Part shown: piece after piece, positions 52,581-58,057 of the stretch | How positions within the stretch are numbered: position 1 is the stretch's first letter | Layout of the letters: the number at the start of each line of letters is the position of its first letter | Assembly: GCF_019649055.1 (NCBI RefSeq) | Contig: NW_026570282.1 | Span: 372,001-436,000, forward strand | Direction: 5' to 3' | DNA length: 64,000 nt | Source of the DNA: Paramacrobiotus metropolitanus | Lineage: Eukaryota > Tardigrada > Eutardigrada > Parachela > Macrobiotidae | Notes under the pieces: generated by a model | Databases searched by the model: none | What the model was told of the DNA's origin: nothing | What the model saw: the letters and a program-made list of their open reading frames with translations, nothing else | Program-made: the position numbers and the translations under genes

Positions 52581-55500
52581 ATGCGACAAAAATTCGGCCG
52601 GATGCGGATACATCAACATGCTACCTGTATTTCGTTAATCTTGGGAATTGCGTTTAGCAGTTTTAAAACCGATGCCAAAGTGCCAAATGCACGAGCCGGA
52701 AGGTAAGAAAATCTTCTAGCTTGACGCTTGCACGAATTGCTGCTTATTTCAGTATTTATGTATAACAGTATAATAACACTGCAACAAAATTTGTGTTTAT
52801 GCGACAGGAATAATGAAAACGTGACCAACATCCACAGGACACAGGAGATCTCAAAGCCCTCCAATTCTTCATTAAACTCCTCTTTTATATCCGCTGTCGA
52901 TTCTGTTACTATCATTTCTACAGTCACGCGCCCTTCCACATCCTCTCCCTTTATAACGGAAAGTAGCACGAAGTCACACAACAGCATTTTGTCTTCCACA
53001 TCAAGCAACTATACCTATTTACATAAAGGTAATTCATCTGGCGGTTTGGTTGATTACGGTACGTACACGATACTCGCAAGATTTGTTGGTAGCGAATTTT
53101 GTATGGAGCCCTCGGGGAAATTATATGCATAATATGTGCAGTATAACAAAATCATATCGGATAATAAAAACAACTGTAATAATATTATTTTAATCGAGAC
53201 TTTGTTAACACAGTTTGCGGTACAACCCCGATGCTATGGGAGCGCATAATTGGGGGCTTCACAGCTGCGGTCGGAGAGTTTCCATGGATGGCTTCGCTTC
53301 GCAAGCGCGATAGCTACAACACTTCCATTCATAAATGCGGCGCGACATTGTTACATCCAGAGTAAAAATCATCTCTACTCTGTAGTTCAGAACATTGTTT
53401 TAGATGATTATCAATGTCGGCCTTGTTATTTGCAGATGGATCATCACAGCAGCGCACTGCGCATACAGGTAATAAATAAGTACAGACCAAAGTCCTGCAA
53501 CTGGACATAGAATTACTGTTGTGAATCTAATAACACGAAGCAAGAACAGCTCTAAAATCATTTGCTACTTTTAAAAGTTTAATGCAAAGAAAGCTGATTT
53601 TTTATCTTTATCGGCCACCAGATGCCAACTCCTGTCCGTTAAAAACCTAATAAATAATACTTTCAGTGGAATTATTGAGAATTAAAATGTACCTCTACTT
53701 ACGATTACAGATTTTAGGATCCGGAAGCGCCGGATGGTGATACGGCTCGGAGCACTGGATGTCGATTATGATGACCAGGCCGATGATTCGCTATCGTATG
53801 TCGATGCCAGAGTGGCTTCGGTGAAAATCCATCCAGATTTTGATAGCGTAACGTTTGAGAACGATTTGGCACTGCTGAAACTGAGCGAGCCGGTACGCTT
53901 AGCTCCCAATATTGTGCCAATCTGCCTAGCGCCATTCATGGATTATATTGGCACTTTCGGGATGCTAGCCGGCTGGGGATTGACCAACCCAGGTATTCTT
54001 TAAAATTCAGATATCGCTTATGTGGTCGATCTTACACATTTCTGGCAGTAAAATAGCTTGTTAGCCATATAGAACCTGTGCTACGATACCGAATCTGGAT
54101 TAGCGTTAAAAATCGGCGTCGCACTGCCGCATTTTACATATGTTGTGACCTTTCAAGTAATATTGTGTGATTCAATCACTTTCTTCGAACAAAAATTTAG
54201 TCTTGTTAATCGTTATTTAGTTCTGTTTGCTGAAGTTTATTAAGAGTATTAGTATATCTTAATGCACTGGACGCTCAAGCTTTAAATATTGAGCGGAAAT
54301 TTCAATAAACCTAGGGCACATATTGTAACAGTGGCCTATCTGGCTACTGTTCTAGTGGGGTGGCGATCAGCCTTTACCACGATTAAACGGCTGTTGGTGT
54401 GAAAGGTGGCACGGCCGGCAACGATGCTGGCCGAGGACGCTCTTACAGATGTAACGCAATTACACAGGTGGCTCCGATTGGGATGACGCTAGTTCATCCC
54501 AAGCGGTCAAACGCAACAACGTAACTCAAGGCATGTTTAATGACAAGGGAATCAAGAACACAGCAAGGTTGTAAGCAAGGGTTTCAGCAAGAGGAACAAT
54601 CAAGTAGATGCAAGCTGTAGCAAGCTGAGCACAAGACTGAATTCTAGAAATTCAGGAGAAAGGAAACTAGCCGGTAACGGGGACACAAATTCATAACGCG
54701 ATGGAATGAATCATAACTGGGCGGTCTTATCGTTCGTACAAATACTATCGCTACATCCCTCACGGTAGCGATGAGATATACTTGTCTCATCAAGACAACA
54801 AAACGAAAGACGTAGGAAAACAGGAAAACAAAGCGTTAGGAATTAGTAAACAATAGAACACAATGGTCCGGGATGATCCTTAACGTACGGCGTGGTGGTC
54901 CCTCACGTTGAACTACCACGAGAATCCATCCGGCGATCGGAAGGATCCTACAGTCAGGTTCCGCTGAGAATGTCCGGGATTGGGAAGGGGTCCCTCACGG
55001 TATCCGGAAATTTTCCGCGTTCTTCCGGCGGCGTGGGGAGGGTTTGGGTGTATCGGCAAAATTTAATGTAGCTGTAGGTATGTTTAGCCTGTGCGGGTTG
55101 CTAAACATCATCTGATAGAATGGAGAATTGCTAATATACTCCAGTGTAGAATTAAGACCATCGACTGTAAGTTCGCGTTTAGCCGGTCTGGGCGATAATG
55201 TACTCGGAATCTCTGGATCTGTGTGACGTACAGCCACTGAAGCAAGCGTCTGTGAGGATTGTGCGGTTGCTTCATTGTCCTGTCTGCACTGTGTGGGGGC
55301 ACATAATGTACTCGTACTGTCCGCATTAATATGCGATAATTTTTCCAATAACTGCATTCTGGCTTTTGTTTGCGGTGTAATATTCGTTTCGGAATCAATC
55401 GAGCAATTTGGCACAGTTGAAGTCGTAACATCGTTGACACAGTTGTTAATGTAAGGCGTATGAGGCTGAAACAATTTAGCTGTACCCAGATTTTGGCGTT

Positions 55501-58057
55501 GTTCCGTTAATATTCGTGAACATCGTGCTACGGAAGCATTCACACGATCAGCGTAAAATGTACTTTCAGTGATAGTGTAAAATACGGGAGGGATATACTC
55601 ATGTCCATAAGGACCTCCCTTTTTATACTCGTTCAACCTTTTGCCTTGTTGACTGTTCCAGAAGGAATTTCCCTTCCGCCATACCATCTGTTCTACAAAC
55701 CCATCGTATTGTTTTTGAACGTTGGCCTTAATATCGTCAGGGCAAATACGCGGTATAGTATGCTTGTCATCGCAGCTAAAATTCTTACATTCGCCATACG
55801 AATGGAAAAAATCACAACATTTCGGGCAAAATAATTTTCCGTTATTCAATCTGTAACTGTCGAAATCTATGTATTTCGGATGTACCTTTTTACTTACGTC
55901 GAAAGTTTTGCGATTGTAATATTTCGTGTGGTCACGCTTACGCAAATTACAGCGATATCGCAAAGAATAAGGTTCAGTGCTGCGCGCACTATCGGGCGTG
56001 TAACTGCGGTACGGCTCACGGTAATATGTCCGATCGCTCTCGGACGAGTGATTGCGAATTTCCCGGTAATGTGAACGCTCCTTTTCATTACTGTAAGTAC
56101 TTTCACGCGAGTAGGGACGGTGTTGTGAACGATACCGTTCTGTACGTGCACGGTCACGGTCTGCACTGGGCGACCGGCGCTCTCTGTAATGTTCACTGCG
56201 TAAGTCATTGCGGCGCGGGCTGGATGACCGGCGGTTATCTGAATCGCTGGAATCACAGTAATATTTGTGGCGATGGTTGCGATAATGTTGTGCATTGTCG
56301 GAGGTTGAATTGGGACTGAATGCGCGTCCAGTTTGGTGCGTACGCTCAGTGGCCGCACCTCTTCGCTGTGTATTCCCAAGCATCATGTTCTGTTCTGCAG
56401 CTCTCTTTAACTGGGCGTTAGTATCTGTAATTTTGCAAGCCGGTTGGGGAAGGAATACAGGCTGGACAGCAGACGTTGTTCTTGGGCTGTATATGATTAA
56501 TTTCGGCAGGGAAGACGCGCTGGCAAGCTTATCTTTACAGTGTTATAATATAGACGGCTATGTTAATAAATCTGCTGAGATTCCACTGAACTGTTGGACC
56601 GAGACCAGTAATGTTTTCTCTGAGCTCAGGCAGTCTCTTGTGTACTGCAGGGTGCAGACCAGGACGTTTTGGCGCGAGCAGACCAAGGCGGCACAGTGGC
56701 GCCGGGTGAACAACGTTAATGTAACGGCCAACGAGAGCACAAACAATTAATTTCAACAAATTTTACCAGTTAATGTAAGCGCACGTAATTTTAATATTGT
56801 TACAAAATGATGGCATTAGAACACGTGTTAAAATTAATGTAATCTTCGCGAATGTAAATCTAGTGCAAGAAAACAGCAAAATTTGCAAAAACAGTGTTAA
56901 TATATGCGCACTGGATGTTTTAGATATTAAGACCGAATAAGGCAAAATTCACCGGTTACAAATTGCACAGTCAAAACTCACGAAGGAACCTCCACTGGTT
57001 CTTGTGGGAAGTTGCGATGGTATATAAATCGCTGATATAGGCTGCAGGCGTCCAGGCGGTATGGTTCTTTACAGGAGCGCCATGTAACAGTGGCCTATCT
57101 GGCTACTGTTCTAGTGGGGTGGCGATCAGCCTTTACCACGATTAAACGGCTGTTGGTGTGAAGGTGGCACGGCCGGCAACGATGCTGGCCGAGGACGCTC
57201 TTACAGATGTAACGCAATTACACAGGTGGCTCCGATTGGGATGACGCTAGTTCATCCCAAGCGGTCAAACGCAACAACGTAACTCAAGGCATGTTTAATG
57301 ACAAGGGAATCAAGAACACAGCAAGGTTGTAAGCAAGGGTTTCAGCAAGAGGAACAATCAAGTAGATGCAAGCTGTAGCAAGCTGAGCACAAGACTGAAT
57401 TCTAGAAATTCAGGAGAAAGGAAACTAGCCGGTAACGGGGACACAAATTCATAACGCGATGGAATGAATCATAACTGGGCGGTCTTATCGTTCGTACAAA
57501 TACTATCGCTACAATATCTATACTGACTATATATAATGAATATAAAAAACGTTTTATTTCAAAAAATAATATTTTATTACAGACGATATGGTAGGCAGTT
57601 CTGTGCTCAAAAAGGTATTTTTGCCAATCGTGAATACGACACAGTGTGAGCAGTGGTACGATACTGCTGGCCGCCATCAGATCATACAGTCTGAGTTCCT
57701 TTGCACAGGATACCAATACGGTGGCCGCGACACTTGTCAGGTACGTAGTGATTTGATAACATTTCAGTCTACCATACCTATCAGGGATGCCTTGACTTGC
57801 GAAGAGCTAAAGAAGTTTAACAGGTTCTTTTCCAGGGTGACTCAGGTGGACCTTTAGTAAAAGAGATTCACGGCCGATGGAGCTTGATCGGTGTAATTAG
57901 CTGGGGTATGGGATGCGCTAGGGCCTATCTGCCCGGTGTCAGTACGTTCGTTCCCGTATACCACCAATGGATAGCCGACACAACTGGCGGTAGCGTAACT
58001 TTACCGGATTTTTTTAAGAAATATCAAACCAACTTTACGCTCACTACTTCGAAATAG
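52581..58057 (+). CDS. Secreted trypsin-like serine protease with Ser/Thr-rich pro-region
   Basis: Seven exons (52581-52702, 52808-53028, 53214-53361, 53436-53468, 53718-53992, 57583-57740, 57836-58057) give 392 residues. The signal peptide is in exon 1 ([16 protein letters not shown]). Exon 2 is a Ser/Thr-rich spacer likely to be O-glycosylated. The catalytic domain begins after a linking Cys ([16 protein letters not shown], cleavage expected between Arg and Ile). The triad is His171 in ITAAHCAY, Asp224 in ENDLALLKL and Ser322 in GDSGGPLV. The residue six before the active Ser is Asp (GGRDTCQGDSGG), predicting trypsin-like cleavage after Arg/Lys. Clip-type or other regulatory domains are absent. 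The acceptor of exon 5 is the second of two AGs; the first would put a stop in frame. Intron 5 (3.6 kb) is inflated by an antisense LTR element. Confidence 0.88.
54324..54755 (-). repeat. 3' LTR (in element orientation)
   Basis: 432 bp, near-identical to the copy at 57083-57513. The only difference noticed by eye is one extra A in GTGTGAAAGGTGGC. Confidence 0.92.
54995..56386 (-). CDS. RS-rich, Cys/His-motif protein of the LTR element
   Basis: A single uninterrupted 463-residue ORF inside the LTR element, starting at two adjacent ATGs (56386). Residues ~20-140 are dominated by Arg, Ser, Tyr, Asp and His in RS/RE-type runs ([18 protein letters not shown]), like SR splicing factors. Around residues 186-209 is a Cys/His cluster, [19 protein letters not shown] then SCDDKH, which could bind zinc but does not fit the classical retroviral CCHC spacing. 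Then comes a mixed region ([20 protein letters not shown]) and a Ser/Thr/Pro-rich C-terminus ending in basic [12 protein letters not shown]. The stop overlaps the first of three CGTGAGGGA-like boxes before the LTR. No polymerase motif is present; a Gag-like or RNA-binding role is a guess. Confidence 0.75.
   Translation of the reverse strand: MMLGNTQRRGAATERTHQTGRAFSPNSTSDNAQHYRNHRHKYYCDSSDSDNRRSSSPRRNDLRSEHYRERRSPSADRDRARTERYRSQHRPYSRESTYSNEKERSHYREIRNHSSESDRTYYREPYRSYTPDSARSTEPYSLRYRCNLRKRDHTKYYNRKTFDVSKKVHPKYIDFDSYRLNNGKLFCPKCCDFFHSYGECKNFSCDDKHTIPRICPDDIKANVQKQYDGFVEQMVWRKGNSFWNSQQGKRLNEYKKGGPYGHEYIPPVFYTITESTFYADRVNASVARCSRILTEQRQNLGTAKLFQPHTPYINNCVNDVTTSTVPNCSIDSETNITPQTKARMQLLEKLSHINADSTSTLCAPTQCRQDNEATAQSSQTLASVAVRHTDPEIPSTLSPRPAKRELTVDGLNSTLEYISNSPFYQMMFSNPHRLNIPTATLNFADTPKPSPRRRKNAENFRIP
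57083..57513 (-). repeat. 5' LTR (in element orientation)
   Basis: 431 bp, TG...CA boundaries, followed on the minus strand with no gap by the putative primer-binding site at 57082-57067. The flank after 57513 is ATAT, matching the flank before 54324. Confidence 0.92.

What the first reader, a model, noticed from the sequence alone, without database searches (positions are those of the whole stretch)
54324..57513. LTR element whose only cargo is an RS-rich protein, with no polymerase
The sequence shows 432/431-bp LTRs with TG...CA ends, an ATAT target duplication, a TGG-starting primer-binding site flush with the 5' LTR, and one intact 463-codon ORF. Known LTR elements carry gag-pol; known non-autonomous ones (TRIM, LARD, TR-GAG) carry nothing or a Gag. 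A lone SR-like protein with a Cys/His cluster does not match any element class I know, so this may be an undescribed non-autonomous family.
Basis: partly seen in the sequence, partly recalled or inferred. Interest (0 to 1): 0.88.

Follow-up and report, generated by a model that had tools for sequence, protein, structure and literature searches.

The report
Gag-only jumping element lacking capsid
This is a recently inserted, polymerase-less jumping element whose single protein is not a novel RS-type protein but a piece of the virus-like Gag protein with its shell-forming part deleted; relatives in the same genome suggest that it is copied by enzymes from larger elements that carry matching start and end signals.

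Summary
The element is real: minus strand, LTRs 57083-57513 and 54324-54755, ATAT duplication, flush PBS, one 463-codon ORF. The ORF is no foreign RS protein. It is the RS-rich and nucleocapsid part of a Ty3/gypsy-type Gag, with a CX2CX4HX4C knuckle, from which the capsid was deleted. Relatives with LTRs 93-98% identical have Gag-only frames of 817-861 codons that keep the capsid. In the same genome 25 loci carry the Gag tail plus a protease match. PBS and PPT lie 8.5-11.3 kb apart in 12 elements, 1.5-3.3 kb in 22, and at no length between. At the end of gag, 21 of 25 protease loci have GGGAAA(A/C) with pol in the -1 frame; 0 of 22 Gag-only copies have it, and 15 of 17 fuse the frames. In 15 of 19 copies the ORF ends in an exact second copy of the 12-nt PPT. 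Capsid was probably lost at least twice. One capsid-less branch keeps its nucleocapsid under purifying selection (pN/pS 0.20-0.31, 6 of 6 pairs); the window's own branch shows little (start codon lost 4 of 4, frame intact 1 of 4). Verdict: capsid-less derivative of a TR-GAG-like lineage, a new variant of a known kind.

The parts
54320..54323 (.). target-site duplication ATAT, left
   Evidence: RTAY type, as in all 18 perfect duplications read
54324..54755 (-). 3' LTR (432 bp)
54756..54767 (-). polypurine tract TACCGTGAGGGA next to the 3' LTR
   Evidence: context ATCTCATCGCTACCGTGAGGGATGT exact at 32 places in the genome, reversed control 0
54991..55002 (-). second, exact copy of the 12-nt polypurine tract; the ORF's TGA stop (54995-54997) lies inside it
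54995..56386 (-). ORF, 463 codons: capsid-less Gag remnant (RS-rich tail, knuckle, C-terminal extension)
54998..55564 (-). C-terminal extension found in the Gag-only copies (ends ENFRIP); may derive from the protease-RT linker of pol
   Evidence: origin only suggestive, E 0.88-8
55550..55870 (-). nucleocapsid-type domain FIDFDSYRL...GGPYG...PP
   Evidence: pN/pS 0.13-0.35 in 36 of 36 pairs of nine Gag-only copies
55637..55645 (-). GGC AAA AGG: place where the gag and pol frames are fused; elements with protease mostly have the heptamer GGGAAA(A/C) and a frame change here
55787..55828 (-). zinc-knuckle-like CPKCCDFFHSYGEC (CX2CX4HX4C)
   Evidence: sequence; the four metal-ligand positions are invariant in the 7 rows of alignment A1
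55940..56302 (-). RS/RY-rich basic Gag tail
56584..56586 (-). former gag start codon, GTG in place of ATG (4 of 4 window-type copies)
57072..57082 (-). primer-binding site TGGCGCTCCTG, flush with the 5' LTR
   Evidence: GTTACATGGCGCTCCTG exact at 35 places, reversed control 0
57083..57513 (-). 5' LTR (431 bp)
57514..57517 (.). target-site duplication ATAT, right

Best explanation
A recent insertion of a non-autonomous Ty3/gypsy-type element from a Gag-only (TR-GAG-like) lineage. SHOWN from sequence: (1) the lineage shares the PBS, the PPT (exact or with two mismatches), related LTR ends and RTAY target sites with elements of 8.5-11.3 kb internal length in the same genome, 12 of 12 of which have a protease match; the one read through (C24) encodes Gag, protease, RT, RNase H, integrase and a third ORF. 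(2) In most of those elements Gag ends just after GGGAAA(A/C) and pol lies in the -1 frame; the Gag-only copies lack the heptamer, have gained one nucleotide that fuses the frames, lack the protease and what follows, and mostly end their ORF inside a duplicate of the PPT. (3) The window copy and three sisters then lost about 280 codons including the capsid, and the original ATG. INFERRED: the element's RNA is packaged, reverse transcribed and integrated in trans by proteins of the larger elements through the shared PBS, PPT and ends. For the window copy its own protein is probably not needed.
For: Gag identity: residues 111-384 align to a Gag-protease frame (34.8%, E about 1e-36) and 290-325 to the pol frame of C24. 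The capsid region of relatives matches Pfam Retrotrans_gag in 4 of 5 (best E 1.4e-4). Pol: protease, RVT_1, RNase H, integrase H2C2 and rve in C24. Spacing of PBS to PPT: 34 pairs, 22 at 1.5-3.3 kb (21 with Gag matches, one with only the third ORF), 12 at 8.46-11.3 kb, none between. Heptamer at the gag end in 21 of 25 loci with a protease match, 0 of 22 Gag-only; fused frame in 15 of 17 Gag-only copies. Capsid not found by tblastn at 1e-2 in 4 of 4 window-type copies. C56, a window-type copy, is 99.9% identical but has another duplication (ATAC), so this capsid-less type moved recently. Start codon lost in 4 of 4; frame intact in 1 of 4; window vs C42 pN/pS 1.0.
Against: No large element with an LTR close to the window's was found: the four compared are about 62-70% identical over 262-288 bp, so the exact helper is not identified; only 40 of 253 LTR candidates were scored. 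The Pfam gag scores that were shown (14.1, 14.4 and 21.7 bits) are below the curated 24.1, the full-length Gag-only ORFs gave no gag match, and profile searches of PDB chains found no capsid. Of the 12 large elements six differ from the PPT pattern by two bases and nine end their LTR in GTTGCA, not GTTACA. Single origin of the Gag-only lineage has only 68/73 support on 73 columns. Window vs C403 gives pN/pS 0.57, so weak constraint within the window type is not excluded. There are no expression or transposition data.
Confidence: 0.88

Rival explanations
1. One-step deletion derivative: the window element is simply a recent internal deletion of one autonomous gag-pol element with the same LTR.
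For: Shared PBS, PPT and related LTR ends; Gag tail homologous to the large elements.
Against: The four large-element LTRs compared are about 62-70% identical over 262-288 bp. The window ORF carries the fused frame and the C-terminal extension that other Gag-only subfamilies also have, which implies that the polymerase was lost before the capsid (inference).
Confidence: 0.07
2. Capsid-less Gag as a working protein: the RS-plus-knuckle protein is itself kept by selection, for example to bind and package the element's RNA or to interfere with helper Gag.
For: In the capsid-less subfamily (C291, C32, C57, C21) the nucleocapsid domain has pN/pS 0.20-0.31 in 6 of 6 pairs (Fisher p at most 0.0011), after a capsid deletion whose surroundings are collinear in C291 and 4 of 4 others compared. 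The window type lost the capsid with other breakpoints, and C38 lost part of it.
Against: For the window type: start codon lost 4 of 4, frame intact 1 of 4, pN/pS 1.0 with C42. In the other capsid-less subfamily C21, C57 and C203 carry stops. Pairwise counts on single copies mix selection on the source copy with later decay.
Confidence: 0.25
3. A captured host SR-type splicing protein carried as cargo by an LTR element.
For: RS-rich composition; no Pfam hit for the window ORF.
Against: The same RS tail and knuckle lie upstream of protease in other elements of the genome; no RRM reported; the match covers the knuckle domain, which is not of low complexity.
Confidence: 0.02

Closest known systems
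CM-gag of Culex pipiens (Bensaadi-Merchermek et al. 1997, Genetica 100:141)
   Same: A repeated mosquito element that, by its title, contains only a gag gene.
   Different: Seen only as an entry in the reference list of PMC3286476; sequence and anatomy not available, so homology is untested.
TR-GAG elements of plants (Chaparro et al. 2015, seen only as a reference)
   Same: LTRs and one ORF for Gag, no pol; PMC8704663 reports new insertions of one in Arabidopsis and a related potentially autonomous element (passages read).
   Different: Described there in plants. Here the Gag-only ORF is fused through the former frame change and carries an extension, and the window copy has lost the capsid, the core of the GAG domain.
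Large Ty3/gypsy-type elements of the same genome, e.g. C24, about 1063265 to beyond 1073000
   Same: PBS, PPT, RTAY 3' flank, RS tail and knuckle; C24's Gag N-terminus is 71% identical to that of the capsid-less copy C291.
   Different: Has protease, RT, RNase H, integrase and a third ORF; LTR diverged; Gag and pol in different frames.
TRIM and LARD elements
   Same: Non-autonomous LTR elements with PBS and PPT (recalled).
   Different: By definition (recalled) without coding regions; this family carries an ORF conserved across subfamilies.
Non-autonomous LTR elements of Culex quinquefasciatus (PMC3286476, passages read)
   Same: Mosquito non-autonomous LTR elements.
   Different: 38 with tandem repeats and, by the abstract, no coding potential.

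Membership tests
LTR retrotransposon | paired LTRs with TG...CA, PBS, PPT, target duplication | tested here: met
Ty3/gypsy type | protease-RT-RNase H-integrase order in a related element with the same PBS and PPT | tested here: met
   C24 pol, PBS and PPT. This order excludes copia type; BEL/Pao has the same order, and its own Pfam families (recalled) are not among the 13 matches, but no RT tree was made
TR-GAG | no pol between the LTRs | tested here: met
   2,327 bp between PBS and PPT; the window ORF matches the pol query only over its first 48 residues, before the protease
TR-GAG | ORF encodes a Gag capsid domain (window copy) | tested here: not met
   no capsid match by tblastn at 1e-2 in 4 of 4 window-type copies
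TR-GAG | ORF encodes a Gag capsid domain (other Gag-only copies) | tested here: met
   found in 11 of 21 Gag-only copies tested, part of it in C38, none in 9; Pfam gag match in 4 of 5 capsid sequences, the score shown below the curated cut-off
TR-GAG | mobilised in trans by an autonomous element | not testable with these tools
   only shared PBS, PPT, related LTR ends and target type are shown
TRIM / LARD | no coding capacity | tested here: not met
   open frames up to 861 codons; nucleocapsid pN/pS 0.13-0.35 in 36 of 36 pairs
CM-gag | sequence similarity to CM-gag | not tested
   sequence not held

The most novel reading that the evidence does not exclude
A long-lived parasitic Gag lineage that made a permanent version of the frameshifted Gag-Pol junction, then shed the capsid at least twice while keeping the RNA-binding end under selection. 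If so, a capsid-less Gag is a functional product: an RNA-packaging or interfering protein with which a non-autonomous element competes for the helper's particles.
Probability: 0.22. Interest if true: 0.75.

Novelty: new variant of a known kind. Interest (0 to 1): 0.5.

Why it matters
In the papers found here Gag-only elements are described mainly in plants, and why they keep Gag is unsettled. This genome offers Gag-only copies with the capsid, without it and with part of it, next to plausible helpers that share PBS, PPT and target type. It makes testable which part of Gag a non-autonomous element must keep. The fused frame and the duplicated PPT are concrete markers by which other genomes can be searched for the same lineage.

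Tried and rejected
Homologous proteins: the 861-residue Gag (P0001) gave no hit at E 0.001 among 7,993 scored candidates; the collection seems to hold few animal proteins (my inference). Pfam on the window ORF: none; on five Gag-only frames plus the window's: only chance-like matches, no gag. PDB sequence profiles: three chance-like hits for the capsid profile, one for the whole Gag profile. Structure of the window's knuckle region without alignment: mean pLDDT 37, unusable, so no fold search was made. Origin of the C-terminal extension: of seven hits at E 0.88-9.7 in the autonomous loci, three (C109, C85, C24; the first two are near-copies) place it at the protease-RT linker, 'IPRTxFVQQ' against 'KPRTPYIKS'; left open. 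Structure downstream of the heptamer: z from -2.5 to 0.9 over six loci against simple shuffles, one (C7) folded at the wrong heptamer, so inconclusive. Primer tRNA: a tRNA-Asn pattern (recalled) did not complete, so the primer is unknown. Considered and rejected: chance ORF, host SR gene, copia type. The species is unknown; my guess of a mosquito rests on recall (genome size, gene content) and on no call.

Rows left out: the tree was given 13 of the Gag-only copies and 23 protease-bearing loci, of which C492 and C23 were skipped (motif missing or cut) and C85 and C109 were not given. In one search pairs with C85 were not printed. In one search C94 and C85 were left out of the profile. In one search C94 was given but not found by the motif. 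In one search, 18 of 52 PBS sites had no partner PPT within 15 kb.

Full report
WHAT IS THERE. The window holds a complete, recent LTR insertion on the minus strand. The two LTRs (431 and 432 bp) differ by one single-nucleotide indel and no substitution, both flanks are ATAT, TGGCGCTCCTG lies flush after the 5' LTR, and TACCGTGAGGGA lies flush before the 3' LTR. It sits in what looks like an intron of a trypsin-like serine protease gene, antisense to it: Pfam Trypsin matches plus-strand ORFs on either side, at profile positions 67-131 and 136-177.

COPIES. The LTR gives 40 near-full matches of 94-100% in the 170-Mb genome, the window's two included (40 of 253 candidates scored). Thirteen paired elements were read at their edges: ten have perfect 4-bp duplications, C94 does not, and in C47 and C21 the left flank could not be read. 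Of ten fetched loci around LTR hits without a listed partner, nine are single LTRs, eight of them with perfect duplications (L027 differs by one base); the tenth (L020) is a damaged element with the PBS and a partial second LTR. All 18 perfect duplications are RTAY.

THE PROTEIN IS GAG. Copies with LTRs 93-98% identical to the window's carry one open frame of 817-861 codons (C183, C40, C122, C6, C64). Its middle part matches Pfam Retrotrans_gag in 4 of 5 sequences scanned alone (best E 1.4e-4; the score shown, 21.7, is below the curated 24.1); the whole frames gave no such match. In C85 a homologous protein runs in one frame into an aspartyl protease, with a weak Retrotrans_gag match (14.1 bits) upstream; C85 has lost the heptamer described below. 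In C24 the next frame holds protease, RT, RNase H and integrase. The window frame aligns from residue 111 to 384 with C85 Gag-protease (34.8%, E about 1e-36; filter and composition correction off, so the RS part is flattered), and the knuckle domain, which is not of low complexity, aligns in all 7 rows of A1 with the Cys, Cys, His, Cys positions invariant. CX2CX4HX4C is the spacing of retroviral zinc knuckles (recalled). So the RS stretch is the basic tail of Gag.

WHAT THE WINDOW COPY LOST. tblastn with five capsid sequences on 24 elements finds none in the four window-type copies (window, C56, C42, C403) nor in C291, C32, C21, C94, C57; part in C38; and all or most in 11 other Gag-only copies and in C24, C85 and C109. 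The original ATG reads GTG in 4 of 4 window-type copies. The frame is intact in the window copy only: C56 has a 1-nt gap, C42 and C403 more. Window against C42: 3 synonymous and 10 nonsynonymous changes, pN/pS 1.0; against C403: 20.5 and 38.5, 0.57. Yet C56 is 99.9% identical with another duplication (ATAC), so the type has moved recently.

THE LARGE ELEMENTS. GTTACATGGCGCTCCTG occurs 35 times exactly and 52 times with up to one mismatch; the PPT 25-mer 32 times exactly and 45 times with up to two; reversed controls give 0. Of 52 PBS sites 34 pair with a PPT on the same contig and strand within 15 kb: 22 at 1,530-3,270 bp, 12 at 8,456-11,258 bp, none between. Twenty-one of the 22 have Gag matches and one carries only the third ORF; 12 of the 12 have a protease match. 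In the 12 the 11-nt PBS is exact; nine end the LTR in GTTGCA; the PPT is exact in six and has two mismatches in six. One long element lies on the window's own contig, about 285 kb away (C62:714980-723687). The LTRs of four large elements are related to the window's in part: C62b and C13 about 70% over 288 bp and 86% over the first 42; C24 and C492 about 62% over 262-287 bp; their 3' flanks read ATAT, ATAT, GTAT and ATAT.

THE FUSED FRAME. In 25 loci with a protease match, GGGAAA(A/C) stands at the end of gag in 21 (C27 has GGGAAAG; C58, C85 and C109 lack it), a stop follows in the gag frame within a few codons in most, and where the fetched stretch shows it pol continues in the -1 frame as GKR...GGPYG. 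X XXY YYZ heptamers of this form are known -1 frameshift signals (recalled); a downstream structure was not shown. None of 22 Gag-only copies has GGGAAA(A/C) in the stretch searched. Against the protease-bearing elements they have one nucleotide more, and 15 of 17 read through in one frame; in C56 a 1-nt loss brings the stop back and C42 is broken. The Gag-only protein is thus a permanent form of the frameshift junction without the enzymes that follow.

THE END OF THE ORF. Of 11 intact Gag-only frames (C85 aside, 12 with C94), ten end ENFRIP, C32 ends KNFRIP and C94 ends differently, which makes the twelve. The stop lies in a copy of the 12-nt PPT 231-320 nt upstream of the 3' one. Of 19 Gag-only copies, 15 have the 12-mer exactly at that place, three with one mismatch (C42, C403, C40), and C94 lacks that copy but has another with one mismatch; C291 and C21 have a further internal copy. 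In C24 the second copy lies inside the third ORF, 264 nt upstream (all). Homology of the 394-bp-LTR subfamily with C24 resumes in this region. A second plus-strand primer is a possible role (inference).

ONE LINEAGE, SEVERAL CAPSID LOSSES. A tree of 34 knuckle domains puts the 13 Gag-only rows on one side of one branch (support 68/73; 72% of 200 bootstrap trees; 73 columns): weak, but the fused frame, the extension and the ENFRIP end agree. Capsid loss has different edges in the two capsid-less types: the window frame keeps a stretch like C183 residues 71-130 and resumes near 416; C291 shares residues 2-114 with C24 and resumes near 395 of C183. The C291 deletion is shared: its first 719-720 nt, across the junction, are collinear in C32, C94, C21 and C57 (82-86%). 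In C291, C32, C57 and C21 the knuckle domain has pN/pS 0.20-0.31 in 6 of 6 pairs, Fisher p at most 0.0011. So in that branch the protein went on being selected after the capsid was gone. Against this, C21, C57 and C203 carry stops, and counts on single copies mix selection on the source with later decay.

HOW IT WORKS. Best reading: the RNA is moved in trans by proteins of large elements with the same PBS and PPT (inferred); for the window type the protein is dispensable (inferred from start loss, broken frames and pN/pS). Rivals and what would refute them are in their sections.

KNOWN OR NEW. Gag-only elements are known as TR-GAG in plants (PMC8704663, passages read; Chaparro 2015 seen only as a reference), and a mosquito element 'contains only a gag gene' by its title (CM-gag, 1997, seen only as a reference). 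Searches of the held open-access library: TR-GAG with non-autonomous and LTR retrotransposon gave 10 papers, whose titles or journals are on plants (listing); TR-GAG with mosquito 0; TR-GAG with animal 3, with plant titles (listing); 'gag only' with insect terms 1, on Drosophila telomere elements (listing); 'non-autonomous LTR retrotransposon' with Anopheles 1 (PMC3286476, passages); two further term sets 1 paper each (listings). None listed describes this lineage, which does not show that none is in print. The case is a new variant of a known kind.

Recounted against the calls: LTR copies (38 elsewhere, not 40), duplications (10 of 13 and 8 of 9), PPT copies (15 of 19 exact), distance to the large element on the same contig (285 kb), pN/pS range (0.13-0.35), and the exclusion of BEL type, which was too strong.

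Noticed in passing
L059 (G000:C40:1040600-1043300): An element with C24-type LTRs (435/444 bp, 97.7% identical) and 1,530 bp inside whose only recognisable coding sequence is the third ORF, with an in-frame stop; a second kind of non-autonomous derivative.
   Followed up: partly
L049:405-1745 (-): Third ORF of 447 codons in the env position of C24; no Pfam match; function unknown.
   Followed up: no
window:54991-55002 and 54756-54767: Exact duplicate of the 12-nt PPT, found in C24 within the third ORF and in 15 of 19 Gag-only copies at the ORF end; possible second plus-strand primer.
   Followed up: partly
window:54320-54323, 57514-57517 and L019-L028: All 18 perfect target duplications read, and the 3' flanks of four large elements, are RTAY.
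   Followed up: partly
window:53734-57857: The element lies in an apparent intron of a trypsin-like protease gene, antisense.
   Followed up: partly
L052, L080, L081: C38, C10 and C5 form another Gag-only subfamily (LTR 447 bp in C38; 768-codon frame in C38 and C10) with only the C-terminal part of the capsid in C38.
   Followed up: partly
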